Positions 6,501-59,443 of a DNA stretch of 64,000 nucleotides are shown in pieces. Below the pieces are notes generated by a model. That model was not told the DNA's origin. It searched no databases and saw nothing but the letters and a program-made list of their open reading frames with translations. Positions within the stretch are counted from its first letter, which is position 1; each line of letters starts with the position of its first letter. This DNA comes from Capillimicrobium parvum (GTDB taxonomy: Bacteria; Actinomycetota; Thermoleophilia; Solirubrobacterales; Solirubrobacteraceae): NCBI RefSeq assembly GCF_021172045.1, contig NZ_CP087164.1:1798001-1862000 (forward strand), given 5' to 3'. The translations under genes and the position numbers were made by a program.

Positions 6501-6552
6501 CGAGTGGCCTCCCATCGGGTCGTGGCCGGGGTGGATGACGACCCGCGGGGTC

Positions 6553-7419
6553 TCATCGCGCGATCCCGTGGCGGTCGGCGAACGGCGCGAGCGCGGCGGC
6601 GAGGACGACGGCGCCGAGGACGAGCGGGCCGGCGCCGCCGTCGATCCGCGTGAGGGGGTAGGCGTCGACGTTCGCCACGCCGGCGATCGCGCCCCCGGCG
6701 CCGGCCACGAGCAGCACGAGCGCGGAGAGGGCGAAGGCGACGTCGTGGCGCGACCACGGGCGGCGCTCGCTCGGGGGGCGGCGGGCGCCGCCGTAGCCGC
6801 GGACCTCGAGCGTGGCGGCGACGTCGGTGGCGCGGTCCAGCGCGCCCGACGCGACGGCCCTCACGAGCGCCAGCCGCGACGCCTTCGGCCCCGGGCGGCA
6901 GCGCTGCCCGTCGGCCAGGCGCCGTCCGTCCGCCGCCAGGACGCCGACCATCCGCGTGGCCAGCGTGGCGGTCAGGGCGGACCGGAACCCCGCGCGGCGG
7001 AAGAGGCGCAGGACCTGGTCGGGATCGACCGCGGCGGCGTACAGCGAGCAGGCGGCGATGACGGCCAGCGCGCGCAGCCCGAGCACGGCGCCGTAGACCA
7101 GCGCTTCGCGCGTGATGTCGAGCTCGCCCAGCGGCCCGACCCCGCCGAGCCGCAGGACGACCGTGAAGCCCTCGCGCGCGACGAGCGGGTTGATGACGAC
7201 GAACAGGACCGCGAGCGGCAGGCCGACGAGCAGCGTGAAGCGGCCGACCTCGCGCGCGACGCCGGCCGCGGCCGCCGCGCCGACCGTGGCGGCGACGACG
7301 GCGACGAGGACCACAGGGTGGGCGTTGGCGAGCGCGCAGGCCACGAGCGCGGCGCACCACGCGCACGCCACGGACGCACGCGCGGCGTGCAGCGGACTCG
7401 CGCGGCGCTGGTAGGTCAC
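6553..7419 (-). CDS. ECF transporter transmembrane coupling protein EcfT (CbiQ-like)
   Basis: 288-residue membrane protein with about six hydrophobic segments. It carries the EcfT cytosolic coupling motifs: DRATDVAATLEVRGYGG matches the A-R-G consensus that docks on the ATPases. It joins the ATPase pair to the S component. The GTG start overlaps the stop of the upstream lipoprotein gene as GTGA, indicating translational coupling between the surface binding protein and the transporter core. Confidence 0.88.
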   Translation of the reverse strand: MTYQRRASPLHAARASVACAWCAALVACALANAHPVVLVAVVAATVGAAAAAGVAREVGRFTLLVGLPLAVLFVVINPLVAREGFTVVLRLGGVGPLGELDITREALVYGAVLGLRALAVIAACSLYAAAVDPDQVLRLFRRAGFRSALTATLATRMVGVLAADGRRLADGQRCRPGPKASRLALVRAVASGALDRATDVAATLEVRGYGGARRPPSERRPWSRHDVAFALSALVLLVAGAGGAIAGVANVDAYPLTRIDGGAGPLVLGAVVLAAALAPFADRHGIAR

Positions 7420-15718: not shown

Positions 15719-16153
15719 ATGGAGGCCGATCAGTTCTCCGAGGCCATGGAGAAGTTCTTCCGCGCGATGCGGCGCGCACGCACGCGCTGGAGCGGCGACC
15801 TGGAGGCCGGCGGCCTCACCGCCGCGCAGCACATCCTGCTCGTGCCCCTGCTCGACGGGCAGGAGCGCTCCGTGCGCCAGCTGGCCGAGGGGGCCGCGGT
15901 CTCGTCGCCCACGGCGACGCGCATGCTCGACGCCCTCGAGCGCGACGGGACGATCGTGCGGCGCCCGTCGCAGACCGACCGGCGCTGCGTGCTCGTCGCG
16001 CTCACCGACGCGGGGCGCGAGGCCCTGAAGGCGGGCCGGACGGCCGCGCGGGCGCGGCGGCGGGCGATCTACGACCGGCTCGAGCCGTCCGAGCGCGCCG
16101 ACGCCGAGCGGATCCTGCGCCGGCTCGCGGTCCTCACCGACGAGACGCCGTAG
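15719..16153 (+). CDS. MarR-family transcriptional regulator
   Basis: 144-residue winged-helix regulator. The DNA-binding region shows VRQLAEGAAVSSPTATRMLDALERDG, then the wing QTDRRCVLVALTDAG, typical of MarR. Such proteins repress efflux or aromatic-catabolism genes until a small aromatic ligand releases them. The ATG at 15719 begins the domain; there is no ribosome site, so a leaderless transcript is possible. It is convergent with the acyl-CoA synthetase gene, whose own promoter region carries a related operator. Confidence 0.9.
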   Translation: MEADQFSEAMEKFFRAMRRARTRWSGDLEAGGLTAAQHILLVPLLDGQERSVRQLAEGAAVSSPTATRMLDALERDGTIVRRPSQTDRRCVLVALTDAGREALKAGRTAARARRRAIYDRLEPSERADAERILRRLAVLTDETP

Positions 16154-16267
16154 GCGCTCCCCGCCCTCGCGCGGGGAGCGGCTGTGACGCCGGCTCGCCG
16201 TCCCCACCGACGAGACGCCGTAGGCGCGCCCCGCCCTCGCGCCGGAGCCGCTACGACGCCGGCTCGC
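16121..16267. repeat. Tandem duplication, ~70-bp unit, at convergent gene ends
   Basis: The stretch beginning CGGCTCGC at 16121 is repeated from 16191 with about 69-70 bases period and a few mismatches; a third partial CGGCTCGC begins at 16260. The unit contains the last ~30 bases of the marR gene, the terminator hairpin and a copy of the last codons of the acyl-CoA synthetase. The hairpin is perfect in copy 1 and decayed in copy 2. Confidence 0.75.
16155..16180 (+). terminator. Hairpin terminator after marR
   Basis: Perfect 10-base stem (CGCTCCCCGC / GCGGGGAGCG) with a 6-base loop starting 2 bases after the marR stop. A degenerate copy occurs in the second repeat unit. Confidence 0.65.
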
Positions 16268-17705
16268 GCAGCTGGGCCCGGCGGATCTTGCCGCTCGACG
16301 TCTTCGGCAGGTCCTCGGCGAAGTCGATGCGCCGGGGGTACTTGTACGGCGCCGTCGTCTGCTTGACGTGGTCCTGCAGCTCGCGCACGAGCTCGTCGCC
16401 CGGCGCGTGCCCGTCGCGCAGGACCACGACCGCCCGGACGATCGCGCCGCGCTCCTCGTCGGGCGCCGCGACCACGGCCGCCTCGGCCACGGCGGGATGG
16501 GCGACGAGCGCGGACTCGACCTCGAACGGGCCGATGCGGTAGCCCGCCGAGATGATCACGTCGTCGGTGCGGCCCTCGAAGTAGAGGAAGCCGTCCTCGT
16601 CGGCGTGGACGCGGTCGCCGGTGCGCCACGGCGCCGTGAGGTCGGGCGGCGGGTCGCCGAGGTAGCCGTTGAAGAACGTCGGGACGGTGCGCGGGTCGGC
16701 GACGAGCTCGCCGTCGTCGATCCACAGGCGCATGCCGGGCAGCGGCCGCCCCATCGAACCCGGGCGCACCGCCTCGTCGAGCGGCGTGCCGGTCATCTGG
16801 CCGGTCTCCGTCTGCCCGTAGCCGTCGCGGATCCACAGGCCGGTCGCCTCGTGCCAGGCGGCGAGCACCTCGGGGTTCAGCGCCTCGCCGGCGGCGACGG
16901 CGCCCCGCAGCTTCGGCAGGCGGCGCAGCGTCGCGCGCTTGGCGATGACGCGGTACTCGGTCGGCGCCATGCACAGCACGTCCACCTGCTCGCGCTCGAG
17001 GAGGTCAAGGCGCTCGGCGGGGTCGAAGCGGCCGTCGTGCAGGAGCGCGGCGGCGCCGCGGATCCACGGTGCGACGAACACGTTGCGTGCCGACTTCGAC
17101 CAGCCGCTGGCGGCGGTGCACCAGACGAGGTCGCCGGGCTGGGCGGCGAGCCAGTGCCCGGCCTGCACGTGCTGGCCGGCGAGATAGCGCTGGGCGTGCA
17201 CGACGGCCTTGGGCTCGCCCGCCGTGCCGCTCGTGAAGATGATGATCGCCGGGTCGCTCGGCTCCAGCTCGGCGGCGGGGGCGGGGTCGCCCTCGCGCCA
17301 GAGCGCGTCGTCTCCGACGAGCAGCACGGGCGTGCCGTCCGCGCCGGCGCCGGCGGCCTCGAGCTCCGCGCGGTTGCGCTCGTCGGCCACGATGGCGGCG
17401 GGGGCGGCGATGCCCAGCCGTAGAGCGAGGTCCTTGGCGCGCAGCTGCTCGTTGCAGGGCAGGACCATGGCGCCGAGGCGGAAGCAGGCGACCATCGTCA
17501 TGACCCACTGCGGCCGGTTGCCGACGAGCGTGAGGACGACGTCGCCGCGGCCGACGCCGTGGCGGGCGAGGGTGCCGGCCAGCCGGGCCGCGCCGTCGGC
17601 GACCTCGCCGAAGCGCCACTCGCGGCGGGAGCCGTCGCGGGCGAGCTCGACGAGCGCGAGCCGGTCGGCGGGTGCGGCGTCGACGACGTCACGGGCGAAG
17701 TTCAT
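16251..17705 (-). CDS. AMP-dependent acyl-CoA synthetase (acetyl/medium-chain type)
   Basis: 484-residue ANL-family ligase that activates a carboxylate as acyl-AMP and then acyl-CoA. Core motifs: IIIFTSGTAGEPKAVVH (P-loop), GYGQTETG, WRTGDRVHADEDGFLYFEGRTDDVI (hinge Asp) and the C-terminal lysine region LPKTSSGKIRR. At 484 residues it is somewhat short for the family (500-560). The ATG at 17705 has no better alternative. It is divergent from the DHA2 exporter, with an AT-rich operator between them, so it may respond to the same MarR regulators; the substrate could be an aromatic or fatty acid. Confidence 0.9.
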   Translation of the reverse strand: MNFARDVVDAAPADRLALVELARDGSRREWRFGEVADGAARLAGTLARHGVGRGDVVLTLVGNRPQWVMTMVACFRLGAMVLPCNEQLRAKDLALRLGIAAPAAIVADERNRAELEAAGAGADGTPVLLVGDDALWREGDPAPAAELEPSDPAIIIFTSGTAGEPKAVVHAQRYLAGQHVQAGHWLAAQPGDLVWCTAASGWSKSARNVFVAPWIRGAAALLHDGRFDPAERLDLLEREQVDVLCMAPTEYRVIAKRATLRRLPKLRGAVAAGEALNPEVLAAWHEATGLWIRDGYGQTETGQMTGTPLDEAVRPGSMGRPLPGMRLWIDDGELVADPRTVPTFFNGYLGDPPPDLTAPWRTGDRVHADEDGFLYFEGRTDDVIISAGYRIGPFEVESALVAHPAVAEAAVVAAPDEERGAIVRAVVVLRDGHAPGDELVRELQDHVKQTTAPYKYPRRIDFAEDLPKTSSGKIRRAQLREPAS

Positions 17706-56142: not shown

Positions 56143-56307
56143 TCAGCGCTTCACGATCAGGAACATGTAGGTCGCCGCGAACGCGAGCTGCCCGACCGTC
56201 ACCGCGACGCCGAGGTTCGCCGCGCCGAACAGCTCGGCCAGCAGCGTCGCGACCGCGAACACGCCCACCATGAGGGCGAGCTGGGACTGCCAGCTCTCGA
56301 GCTTCAC
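56143..56307 (-). CDS. Small two-helix membrane protein, 54 aa, coupled to meaB
   Basis: 54 residues with two hydrophobic segments (LALMVGVFAVATLLAELFG and LGVAVTVGQLAFAATYMFLIV) and a basic KR end. GTG start overlaps the meaB stop as GTGA, so it is translated with the mutase chaperone. No family recognised. Confidence 0.62.
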   Translation of the reverse strand: MKLESWQSQLALMVGVFAVATLLAELFGAANLGVAVTVGQLAFAATYMFLIVKR

Positions 56308-57284
56308 CGTCCCACCTGCGCTTCCGCCGTCCCGGCCGCGTCCTCGAGCACGCGCACCAGCGTAGGGACGTCGGCCCCCGCCTGCTGCGCGGTGAGCAGC
56401 CGGAGCGCCGCGCGGGCGCCGCCGACCGACCGCAGGCCGCGTTCGCCGTGCTCGACCGTGAAGTCGGTGAGCGCCGCGTCGCGGCGCGCAGCCTGGCGCC
56501 GCGCGGCGACGTCGAGCCGCTCGCGATGGGCGTCGATCGCGGCGATCAGGTCGTCGACGCCCTGGACCGGGGCGATCGACGAGACGGCGACCACCGGCGT
56601 GTCACGCGCGCCGAGCGAGCGCAGCGCGGCGCCCAGGTCGCGCCGCGCGCGATGCGCCACCACGCCGAGGTCCGCCTTCGTCACGACCAGGACGTCCGGC
56701 ACCTCCATGATCCCGCTCTTGAGGAACTGCAGGGCGTCGCCCGATCCCGGCTGGACGATCACCGCGACGGTGTCGGCGACGTGCGCGACCTCGGTCTCGG
56801 ACTGGCCGACGCCGACCGTCTCGATGACGACCACGTCGAACGCGGCGGCCAGCGCGGCGGCCGCGGCGCGCGTCGACGGCGCGATCCCGCCGAGGCGCCC
56901 GCCCGCCGCCGTGGACCGGATGAACACCGCCCGGTCGGCCGGGTCGTGGACGATCCGCGCGCGATCGCCGAGCAGCGACCCGCCGGAGCGCTTCGACGAC
57001 GGGTCGACCGCGAGCACCGCCACGCTGCGACCCGCCGCCCGCCACGCCTTCACGAGCGCCGACAGCAGCGTCGACTTGCCCGCCCCGGGCGGCCCGGTGA
57101 TGCCGACGACGTGGCCGGGGGCCTCGCCGCCGAGCGCGGCGGGGGAGACGCCCTCCAGCAGCGCGTCGACGTCGGCCCGCGCCGCGGGCGATCGGTTCTC
57201 GACCAGGTTGAGGGTGGCCGGAGCGGCCGCGAGGTCGCCGTCGCGCAGCCGCGCGGCCAGCTCGGCGCCCGCTGCGGGACTCAC
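56304..57284 (-). CDS. meaB: MeaB-family GTPase chaperone of a B12-dependent mutase
   Basis: 326-residue G3E GTPase. P-loop GITGPPGAGKST, DPSSKRSGGSLLGDRARI (switch), VVIETVGVGQSE (G3) and VVTKADL (NKxD variant). It loads and protects the adenosylcobalamin cofactor of methylmalonyl- or ethylmalonyl-CoA mutase. GTG start lies at the edge of the first copy of a 56-bp repeat, which separates it from the mutase gene. Downstream is a coupled 54-residue membrane gene. Confidence 0.94.
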   Translation of the reverse strand: MSPAAGAELAARLRDGDLAAAPATLNLVENRSPAARADVDALLEGVSPAALGGEAPGHVVGITGPPGAGKSTLLSALVKAWRAAGRSVAVLAVDPSSKRSGGSLLGDRARIVHDPADRAVFIRSTAAGGRLGGIAPSTRAAAAALAAAFDVVVIETVGVGQSETEVAHVADTVAVIVQPGSGDALQFLKSGIMEVPDVLVVTKADLGVVAHRARRDLGAALRSLGARDTPVVAVSSIAPVQGVDDLIAAIDAHRERLDVAARRQAARRDAALTDFTVEHGERGLRSVGGARAALRLLTAQQAGADVPTLVRVLEDAAGTAEAQVGR

Positions 57285-57448
57285 GATGCGTTGCCTCGCA
57301 GGGTTGCGGCGTCGCGGGGTGAGGGCCCGCAGGGCCTCACGATGCGTTGCCTCGCAGGGTTGCGGCGTCGCGGGGTGAGGGCCCGCAGGGCCTCACGATG
57401 CGTTGCCTCGCAGGGTTGCGGCGTCGCGGGGTGAGGGCCCGCAGGGCC
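57281..57448. repeat. Three tandem copies of a 56-bp repeat between ecm and meaB
   Basis: Copies begin at 57281, 57337 and 57393 and appear identical; the fourth starts with TCACG and breaks off inside the mutase stop. Each unit has an internal dyad (GAGGGCCC / GGGCCTC) and, on the minus strand, begins GTGAGG, repeating the gene-junction signal. Period 56 is not a multiple of three. Confidence 0.92.
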
Positions 57449-59443
57449 TCACGCCTTTGCGGTCACGGGGTCGGGCCGGTGCGCGCGCTCGACCAGCGCC
57501 ACCACCTCGCCCATGATCCGCGTGAACCCGACGTCCTTCGGGGTGTAGACCGCCGCCACCCCGGCCTCCTCGAGGGCGGGGACGTCGGCCGCCGGGATGA
57601 TCCCGCCCACGACGACCGGGACGTCGACGCCCGCGGCCCGCAGCGCCTCCATCACCGCCGGGATCAGCTCGCGGTGCGAGCCGGACAGGATCGACAGCCC
57701 GATGACGTGCACGCCCTCGTCGAGCGCGCTCTTGGCGATCTGTTCGGGCGTCAGCCGGATGCCGTCGTAGACGACGTCCATCCCGACGTCGCGCGCGCGC
57801 ACGGCGAACTGCTCGGCGCCGTTGGAGTGCCCGTCCAGACCGGGCTTGCCGACGAGGATCTTCAGCGTGCGGCCGAGCGACTCCGAGACGCGCTCGACCT
57901 GCTCGCGCACCTGCTCCACCTCCACGGATTGCGGCGCCGCGGTGGCCTCGCCGACGCCGGTGGGCGCCCGGTACTCGCCGAACGCGTCGCGCAGCGTCTG
58001 CGACCACTCGCCGGTGGTGACGCCCGCGCGGGCGGCGGCGATCGTCGCCGGCATGATGTTCTGGGCGTCGTCGGCGGCGACGCGGGCCAGCTCGGCCAGC
58101 GCCGCGTCGACGCCGGCCTGGTCGCGCTCGGCGCGCCACGCCTCGAGCGCCTCGCGCTGGTGGGCCTCGACGCCCGGGTCGACCACGAGGATGCCGCCGT
58201 CCTCGCCGTCGGCCAGCGGCGACGGCTCGGTCTCCGTGTAGCGGTTGATGCCGACCACGGTCAGCTCGCCGGCCTCGATGCGGCGGATGCGCTCGCGGTG
58301 GGAGTCGACGAGCGCCGCCTTCATGTACGACACCGCCTCGACGGCGCCGCCGTGCTCGGCCACGACGGCCATCTCGCGCCGCGCGCCCTCGAGCAGCTCC
58401 TCGACGAGGCCGTCCATGACCTTCGAGCCCTCGAAGATGTCGGGGTACTCGAGCAGGTCGGTCTCGTAGGCGAGGACCTGCTGGATGCGCAGGGACCACT
58501 GCTGGTCCCACGGCCGCGGGAGGCCGAGCGCCTCGTTCCACGCCGGCAGCTGCACGGCGCGCGCACGGGCGCCGCGGCCCAGCGTGACGGCGAGCGCCTC
58601 GAGCACGATGCGCTGCACGTTGTTCTCGGGCTGGGACTCGGTGAGGCCGAGCGAGTTGACCTGCACGCCGTAGCGGAAGCGCAGGGCGCGCTCGTCCTCG
58701 ACGCCGTAGCGCTCGCGGCCGAGCTCCTCCCAGAGGATGCCCATCGTCCGCAGCTTCGCGTGCTCCTCGATGAACCGCACGCCCGCGTTGACGAAGAACG
58801 AGATGCGCGCGAAGACCTTCGGCATGAGGTCCTCGGAGACGCGCTCCCGGACCGCGTCGAGGACCGCGATCGCGTTCGACATCGCGTACGCGATCTCCTG
58901 GACCGGCGTGGCGCCCGCCTCCTGCAGGTGGTAGCTGCAGATGTTGATCGGGTTCCACTTGGGCACCTCGGTGACCGTGTAGGCCACCATGTCGGCGATC
59001 AGGCGCATCGACGGCCCGGGCGGGAACGCGTACGTGCCGCGGGCGAGGAACTCCTTGATGATGTCGTTCTGGGTCGTGCCCTGGAGCGCGGCGGCGTCCA
59101 CGCTCTGCTCCTCGGCGGCCACGATGTAGAGCGCCAGCAGCCACGCCGCCGTCGCGTTGATCGTCATCGACGTGTTCATGTCGCCGAGCGGGATCCCGTC
59201 CATCAGCATGCGCATGTCGCCGAGGTGGGCGACCGGCACCCCGACCTTGCCCACCTCGCCGCGCGCGAGGGCGTGGTCCGGGTCGTAGCCGGTCTGCGTG
59301 GGCAGGTCGAACGCTACGGAGAGGCCCGTCTGTCCCTTCGCCAGGTTCGAGCGATACAGCTCGTTGGACTTCTCCGCCGTGGAATGGCCCGCATACGTGC
59401 GCATCATCCACGGCCGGTCCGGCTCGGGAAGGCGGTGACTCAT
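57449..59443 (-). CDS. ecm: Ethylmalonyl-CoA mutase (B12-dependent, MeaA type)
   Basis: 664-residue single-chain mutase. RTYAGHSTAEKSNELYRSN, FDLPTQTGYDPDHALARGEVGKVGVPVAHLGDM and LGLPRPWDQQWS are specific to MeaA/Ecm rather than methylmalonyl-CoA mutase. The C-terminal cobalamin domain has DGHSNG (Asp537, His539 as lower ligand) and SILSGSH, GGIIP. It converts ethylmalonyl-CoA to methylsuccinyl-CoA. Its chaperone meaB follows. ATG overlaps the ATG of the divergent methyltransferase by 2 bases. Confidence 0.93.
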   Translation of the reverse strand: MSHRLPEPDRPWMMRTYAGHSTAEKSNELYRSNLAKGQTGLSVAFDLPTQTGYDPDHALARGEVGKVGVPVAHLGDMRMLMDGIPLGDMNTSMTINATAAWLLALYIVAAEEQSVDAAALQGTTQNDIIKEFLARGTYAFPPGPSMRLIADMVAYTVTEVPKWNPINICSYHLQEAGATPVQEIAYAMSNAIAVLDAVRERVSEDLMPKVFARISFFVNAGVRFIEEHAKLRTMGILWEELGRERYGVEDERALRFRYGVQVNSLGLTESQPENNVQRIVLEALAVTLGRGARARAVQLPAWNEALGLPRPWDQQWSLRIQQVLAYETDLLEYPDIFEGSKVMDGLVEELLEGARREMAVVAEHGGAVEAVSYMKAALVDSHRERIRRIEAGELTVVGINRYTETEPSPLADGEDGGILVVDPGVEAHQREALEAWRAERDQAGVDAALAELARVAADDAQNIMPATIAAARAGVTTGEWSQTLRDAFGEYRAPTGVGEATAAPQSVEVEQVREQVERVSESLGRTLKILVGKPGLDGHSNGAEQFAVRARDVGMDVVYDGIRLTPEQIAKSALDEGVHVIGLSILSGSHRELIPAVMEALRAAGVDVPVVVGGIIPAADVPALEEAGVAAVYTPKDVGFTRIMGEVVALVERAHRPDPVTAKA

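What the first reader, a model, noticed from the sequence alone, without database searches (positions are those of the whole stretch)
57281..57448. Perfect triple 56-bp repeat separates the mutase from its chaperone gene
Three apparently identical copies, each re-creating the GTGAG gene-junction motif and a hairpin-forming dyad, lie in the only gap of the ecm-meaB unit. The number of copies sets the distance, offers several alternative GTG starts in different frames, and could tune the mutase:chaperone ratio. Identical copies suggest recent or ongoing expansion.
Basis: seen in the sequence. Interest (0 to 1): 0.58.

Follow-up and report, generated by a model that had tools for sequence, protein, structure and literature searches.

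The report
Start-codon-hopping mini-repeats in soil bacterium
The triple repeat is one array of a family of tiny 56-letter elements that sit exactly where one bacterial gene ends and the next begins, at more than forty places in this genome, in essential operons too, and that seem built to keep the two genes translationally linked.

Summary
In detail: three perfect 56-bp copies separate a methylmalonyl-CoA-mutase-type gene from meaB. It is not a private tandem repeat. The same kind of unit occurs at 53 places in this 5.95-Mb Solirubrobacteraceae genome; 43 end on a downstream start of the form DTGA and 40 keep an exact 56-bp period. Each unit runs from one DTGA (stop overlapping start) to the next and holds a 19-codon mini-ORF, prolonging a chain of -4 overlaps. 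Congeners show the empty site: plain GTGA at mutase-meaB (3 of 3) and DTGA at 44 of 52 other scorable junctions. Sites include dnaN-recF, nuoJ-K, rplF-rplR and trpB-trpA. The layout is that of mycobacterial MIRUs, but the sequence is unrelated. New feature: a hairpin plus a 5-nt arm complementary to the 3' end of the unit, whose last paired base lies in the host gene. This holds locus by locus (44 of 53; shuffled 16), even where the 3' end is no start codon. I read it as target pairing by a mobile element; start-codon masking is the rival. Divergent families occur in other Solirubrobacterales. Copy-number tuning of mutase:MeaB is untested. No mobilising enzyme was found.

The parts
57397..57452 (-). 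Unit 1 (56 bp): starts on the mutase stop/start overlap GTGA, 19-codon mini-ORF VRPCGPSPRDAATLRGNAS
57341..57396 (-). Unit 2, identical to unit 1
57285..57340 (-). Unit 3, identical; its stop TGA overlaps the meaB GTG start
57436..57448 (-). Hairpin H1 of unit 1 (unit positions 5-9 pair with 13-17)
   Evidence: covariation in 49 units; repeated in units 2 and 3
57319..57323 (-). 5-nt arm (CTCAC) of unit 3, complementary to the downstream GTGAG (H2)
57280..57284 (-). GTGAG at the meaB start: partner of the arm; its fifth base lies in the host gene
57294..57297 (-). GAGG, weak Shine-Dalgarno-like stretch before the next GTG (family consensus GGGAGG)
57449..59443 (-). Upstream gene: methylmalonyl-CoA-mutase-type mutase
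56304..57284 (-). Downstream gene: MeaB-type GTPase
6501..6556 (-). Second place in the window: single ATGA-type unit between two co-directional genes (arm GTCAT, 3' end ATGAC)

Best explanation
The triple repeat is an array of a dispersed, MIRU-like coupling element. SHOWN: a 56-bp unit runs from DTGA to DTGA, holds a 19-codon mini-ORF and a short hairpin, occurs at dozens of same-strand gene junctions of this genome, and sits at sites that are plain DTGA overlaps in congeners. FOLLOWS FROM THE GEOMETRY: because 56 = 2 mod 3, a ribosome that ends the upstream gene can restart at the mini-ORF and then at the next start, so the unit extends the overlap chain rather than breaking it. SHOWN: a 5-nt arm beside the hairpin is complementary, locus by locus, to the last bases of the unit plus one base of the host gene. 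INFERRED: this pairing is how the unit (as single-stranded DNA or RNA) finds or joins its target; the insert is tolerated in essential operons because coupling survives; later unequal exchange or slippage multiplies units, which gave the three perfect copies at mutase-meaB.
For: Own-genome census: 67 matches at E<=0.01. I carried 72 matches forward (all 79 but the 7 weakest), forming 53 arrays; 43 of 53 have DTGA at the 3' end and 40 of 53 also keep exact multiples of 56; all 19 internal spacings are 56. In the 43, GC3 shows the downstream gene starting in frame at the DTGA in 43 and the upstream gene ending there in 35 (read by eye). Mini-ORF intact in 58 of 59 units. Empty sites: GTGA in 3 of 3 congeners at mutase-meaB; DTGA in 44 of 52 scorable congener junctions. 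Pairing: 97.1% of cells paired, 31 double changes against 5.9 in shuffles; perfect 5-mer in 44 of 53 arrays against 16.2 shuffled. Other Solirubrobacterales carry divergent 56-bp units.
Against: No enzyme that could move the unit was identified; Y1 (IS200/IS605) transposases are absent from G000, G002 and G058. No insertion was seen to happen; no strain pair of one species was available. Coupling itself was not measured. Related subfamilies inflate the pairing statistics, though locus-specific arms reduce that worry. In G012 (3 units) and 2 G058 units the arm fits the 3' end poorly. Four of 53 arrays (L166, L169, L170, L173) do not fit the arm rule; at least L169 and L170 look like chance hits.
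Confidence: 0.72

Rival explanations
1. RNA gate: the arm pairs with the downstream start codon in the mRNA (H2) and hides it, so the next gene is read only when ribosomes arrive through the mini-ORF; the pairing is kept by selection after insertion.
For: The arm's last base matches the downstream D in 40 of 40 clean arrays; minimum-energy folds of two rplF-rplR units show H1 plus H2; mean H2 pair probability 0.21 falls to 0.11 when downstream sequences are swapped; rplF-rplR units in G000 and G002 differ by a matching change on both sides (GTCAT/ATGAC and CTCAT/ATGAG).
Against: The complementarity persists at five loci where the mini-ORF is fused in frame to the next gene and the 3' end is no start codon (L007, L151, L158, L167, L171). 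Predicted H2 probability exceeds 0.5 in only 11 of 48 units. Two arrays (dnaN-recF and the nuoH one) match the terminal host site, not the internal junctions. Empty rplF-rplR sites in congeners carry both ATGAC and ATGAG, so separate insertions explain the difference too.
Confidence: 0.3
2. The array tunes the mutase:MeaB ratio by copy number.
For: Perfect copies suggest recent change of number; copy number varies from 1 to 4 between loci.
Against: The same unit sits at functionally unrelated junctions, so nothing is special to the mutase pair; congeners manage with no unit. No strain data.
Confidence: 0.12
3. A non-autonomous relative of IS200/IS605 or REP elements moved by a Y1 transposase.
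For: A short hairpin with an adjacent guide complementary to a short flank is how those elements are recalled to work.
Against: No Y1_Tnp domain in G000, G002 or G058 (G328, G369, G012 not tested). Clean -4 start/stop targeting is not a feature I know of that group.
Confidence: 0.12
4. The mini-ORF makes a functional micropeptide.
For: Frame intact in 58 of 59 units; recurrent start MRPCGSS or MRPRGSS.
Against: Codon third positions are not more variable, and the synonymous fraction in frame (0.317) lies between those of the other frames (0.339, 0.269); G328 units read VRPCVALTH instead.
Confidence: 0.04
5. Ordinary local tandem duplication or an assembly error at one locus.
For: Copies are identical.
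Against: 53 arrays genome-wide and units in other genera.
Confidence: 0.02

Closest known systems
Mycobacterial interspersed repetitive units (MIRUs; Supply et al. 1997, not read; described in PMC12548453 and PMC4213456, passages read)
   Same: Short tandem units at many gene junctions, bounded by DTGA, carrying a mini-ORF with a -4 overlap to the next gene, GGAGG-type stretch just before the next start; identical tandem copies.
   Different: No sequence similarity; 56-bp period fixed here against 52-54 in the mycobacterial arrays examined; hairpin plus 3'-complementary arm described here only; host is Solirubrobacterales, not mycobacteria.
REP/REPIN elements with RAYT transposases and IS200/IS605 ends (PMC3733652, PMC6006769: search listing only; mechanism recalled)
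   Same: Small hairpin with an adjacent short guide; many dispersed copies.
   Different: No GTAG/CGTC tag seen in the consensus; no Y1 transposase in G000, G002, G058; sits at start/stop overlaps and encodes a coupling frame.
Staphylococcal STAR and other intergenic tandem repeats (PMC3532100, listing only)
   Same: Dispersed intergenic direct repeats.
   Different: No start/stop overlap geometry known to me for them.

Membership tests
MIRU | Short direct repeats in variable tandem number at many junctions | tested here: met
   40 clean arrays of 1-4 units
MIRU | Bounded by DTGA so that the internal ORF overlaps both neighbours by -4 | tested here: met
   empty DTGA sites in congeners
MIRU | Sequence homology to the mycobacterial unit | tested here: not met
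   No model match below E 0.18; consensus alignment no better than shuffles, 656 of 1000; blastn hits only short scattered words
MIRU | Occurs in mycobacteria | tested here: not met
   A looser hairpin pattern found it in 2 of 396 phylum genomes: this one and one match without the unit's layout
MIRU | Mobile | not testable with these tools
   Only indirect: occupied against empty sites
REP/RAYT or IS200/IS605-derived element | Cognate Y1 (HUH) transposase in the genome | tested here: not met
   PF01797 absent in G000, G002, G058
REP/RAYT or IS200/IS605-derived element | Hairpin with guide complementary to the flanking site | tested here: met
   (resemblance in layout only)
Known structured RNA family (Rfam 15) | Match above gathering score | tested here: not met

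The most novel reading that the evidence does not exclude
A new kind of micro-mobile element: each unit carries beside its hairpin a 5-nt arm that is complementary to its landing site (or is rewritten to it on arrival), mostly the start/stop overlap DTGAN, so that it inserts at translational coupling sites of essential operons and builds a relay mini-gene; now and then it lands in fused form and adds an N-terminal tail to the host protein.
Probability: 0.3. Interest if true: 0.82.

Novelty: new variant of a known kind. Interest (0 to 1): 0.62.

Why it matters
MIRUs underlie tuberculosis strain typing (recalled), yet how they spread is, as far as I know, unsolved. A second, unrelated family with the same geometry in a distant actinobacterial order suggests that start/stop overlaps are a general safe harbour for tiny elements. 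The arm-to-target complementarity gives the first concrete handle I know of on how such a unit might choose its site, and 53 natural loci with congener empty sites make it testable. It also warns gene annotators: dozens of real operon junctions here contain a coupled 19-codon ORF, and at five loci an N-terminal extension.

Tried and rejected
Rejected: (1) one long hairpin 1-9/13-22 as the structure (my first model, R1). It has 10 unpaired cells of 49 at pair 1-22 and 15 at 5-18, against 0 at 5-17, 2 at 18-61 and 0 at 22-57 for the two-helix model. (2) Peptide-level selection on the mini-ORF; note that frame 2 is also stop-free in 54 of 59 units, so openness alone says little. (3) A Y1 transposase. 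(4) Phage or plasmid carriage: no exact match in viral contigs, no plasmid match. (5) G003's dnaN-recF insertion as a large family of its own: no dispersed copies found; it looks like a shortened relative of the unit (model match 2.0e-5). (6) Single matches in 14 other order genomes at E 3e-5 to 2.4e-4: none of the 14 printed shows DTGA at both ends 56 apart by eye. G188 and G487 pattern matches do not show the layout either.

Rows dropped before counts: the 7 weakest of the 79 model matches; 13 of 53 arrays set aside for the 40-array statistics (8 lacking DTGA at the 3' end, 5 with another length) and then examined on their own. In one search, 15 of 67 printed rows were not scored (10 without an aligned upstream flank, 5 with the upstream gene in another frame); two of the 44 (L143/G001, L003/G003) were read by eye from the printed context. 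One search scored 150 of 9323 first-look candidates and only 23 per genome, so counts are lower bounds.

Literature: eight paper searches listed no report of such elements in Solirubrobacterales or Thermoleophilia; this covers only the held open-licence library.

Full report
What is there. On the minus strand the operon runs mutase - three identical 56-bp units - meaB. The mutase ends ...GCG TGA; that TGA overlaps a GTG which opens GTG AGG CCC TGC GGG CCC TCA CCC CGC GAC GCC GCA ACC CTG CGA GGC AAC GCA TCG TGA, and this TGA overlaps the next unit's GTG; the third unit's TGA overlaps the meaB GTG. The unit is therefore a 19-codon ORF chained by -4 overlaps. In the three congeners held (G001, G002, G003) mutase and meaB overlap directly as GTGA. 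Neither gene was fully classified: the mutase passes the methylmalonyl-CoA mutase domain cut-offs but not the equivalog, and MeaB falls just below its model's cut-off.

It is a dispersed family. A DNA search of the own genome found six further places. A covariance model from nine units found 67 matches at E<=0.01, and 72 matches carried forward form 53 arrays. In 43 of 53 the 3' end is DTGA; 40 of 53 also have exact multiples of 56. GC3 profiles, read by eye, show the downstream gene starting in frame there in 43 of 43 and the upstream gene ending at the unit's first DTGA in 35 of 43; in the other eight the unit appears to sit at the start codon only, for example before rplA. Named junctions: dnaN-recF (3 units), nuoJ-nuoK (3), nuoC-nuoD, rplF-rplR, pyrH-frr, trpB-trpA, dapA-RNase J; named downstream genes: nuoH (2 units), ftsW-like, asd, hisS (3), ispF, rplA, hemA, guaA, carA, rsmD (3), flgK, flgL, fliM-like. 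Copies inside an array are nearly identical (mean 0.949; 10 of 19 neighbours identical); copies in different arrays are not (mean 0.672).

Empty sites. A joined query of 24 downstream N-termini gave 67 orthologous rows in the three congeners. Of 52 rows scorable on both sides, 44 are plain DTGA overlaps, one (rplF-rplR in G002) holds a unit, three in G003 hold other insertions (77, 44 and 65 nt, all 2 mod 3, as coupling requires), and four have another spacing. At asd the congeners read ATGAGG, while here ATGA-unit-GTGAGG is found: the host's ATGA stays upstream and the gene now starts with the unit's GTG. Among the 30 best rplR loci of the family (118 of 131 genomes had a match), units occur at rplF-rplR in G000, G002 and G012; by my reading of the printed junctions 24 of the other 27 are plain -4 overlaps. 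Since G001 and G003 are empty, this is a recurrent target or a site of clean loss.

Structure. Across 49 units (40 here, 2 of G002, 7 of G058; alignment without gaps) two helices are supported: H1, positions 5-9 with 13-17, and H2, positions 18-22 with 57-61. 97.1% of cells pair; 31 cells have changes on both sides against 5.9 in shuffles, and slid versions drop to 31-45%. Pair 5-17 occurs as GC, AU, CG and UA, 49 of 49 paired; pair 22-57 as CG 37 and UA 12, 49 of 49; pair 18-61 pairs in 47 of 49. Position 61 lies outside the unit, in the downstream gene. The rival long hairpin is weaker. The model that found the own-genome units (R1) did not contain H2, so that search was not biased towards it.

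The strongest point came from the 13 arrays I had set aside. In nine of them the arm, unusual in most, is a perfect 5-mer complement of its own 3' end: CACCC/GGGTG, ATCGCC/GGCGAT, GACATC/GATGTC, CCTCC/GGAGG, CTCAG/CTGAG and others. With partners shuffled the expectation is 1.05 of 13 (0 of 5000 shuffles reach 9); over all 53 arrays it is 44 observed against 16.2. At five of these loci the mini-ORF has no stop and runs in frame into the next gene (CheR, an SRP54/FlhF-like GTPase, a glutamine amidotransferase, a methylpurine-DNA glycosylase, a class-V aminotransferase I take to be SufS), giving an N-terminal tail; their Pfam domains begin after the tail. There the 3' end is no start codon, yet the complementarity holds. 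That argues that the pairing belongs to the element (target choice or joining) rather than only to masking a start codon. I cannot exclude RNA-level selection: folding shows H2 in some units, and swapping downstream sequence halves its mean probability (0.21 to 0.11).

The mini-ORF keeps length and frame (58 of 59) but shows no amino-acid constraint. In G328 the hairpin is one base longer, yet the total is still 56 in 11 of 11 complete units; length appears to be what is held.

Distribution. The strict hairpin pattern hits 4 of 399 class genomes (52 sites here, 2 in G002, 6 in G058, 1 chance-like in G188). A looser exact pattern hits 2 of 396 phylum genomes. The second model over 232 order genomes reveals divergent versions: G328 (12), G369 (3), G012 (3), more in G058, and a shortened one in G003; checked by eye. 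In G012 and in two G058 units the arm fits the 3' end poorly, which is evidence against a universal rule. The record titles of MeaB relatives place the host among Solirubrobacteraceae; the family held as f1 was not named by the tool.

Comparison with the known. A 2025 review (PMC12548453, passage read) describes MIRUs as apparently mobile, inserting at start codons so that an internal ORF is coupled with -4 spacing. A MIRU sequence recalled from memory matched 163 of 297 genomes of a genus that I take to be Mycobacterium. In 15 fetched loci, 32 of 42 cores have DTGA near each end, 40 of 42 have GGAGGAG before the next start, and the period is 52-54, mostly 53. The Solirubrobacterales unit works like a MIRU but shows no homology to it. 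I therefore file it as a new variant of that kind, not as a MIRU.

Verdict. Observation confirmed; interpretation partly right. The interest lies in the family and in its arm-target rule, not in this one array.

Noticed in passing
L171:1501-2760, L007:637-1575, L151:1501-2142, L158:1501-2220, L167:1501-2814 (own genome): Fusion form of the unit: the stop codon is replaced (mostly by a Gly codon) and the mini-ORF runs in frame into the next gene (class-V aminotransferase, CheR, MPG glycosylase, GATase, SRP54/FlhF-like), adding an N-terminal tail. Congener N-termini not checked.
   Followed up: partly
L261 (G003 dnaN-recF), L254 and L242 (G003): G003 has other inserts of 77, 44 and 65 nt at DTGA junctions, all 2 mod 3; the first looks like two shortened units fused into one 26-codon coupled ORF, the others share no obvious sequence with the unit.
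   Followed up: partly
rplF-rplR junction: L373, L374, L388: The same ribosomal-protein junction is occupied in G000, G002 and another genus (G012) but empty in G001 and G003: hotspot, or clean loss.
   Followed up: partly
window 16118-16268: Another tandem repeat, 70-bp period, 2.2 copies, 89% match, second-highest score in the window.
   Followed up: no
L007:1430-1575: At cheR two further degenerate units with GGGTGG ends follow the first, all in frame, so the protein seems to begin with three fused units.
   Followed up: partly
L365 (G369): A unit whose 3' end is CTGA with arm TCAG: a possible CTG start, still complementary over four bases.
   Followed up: no
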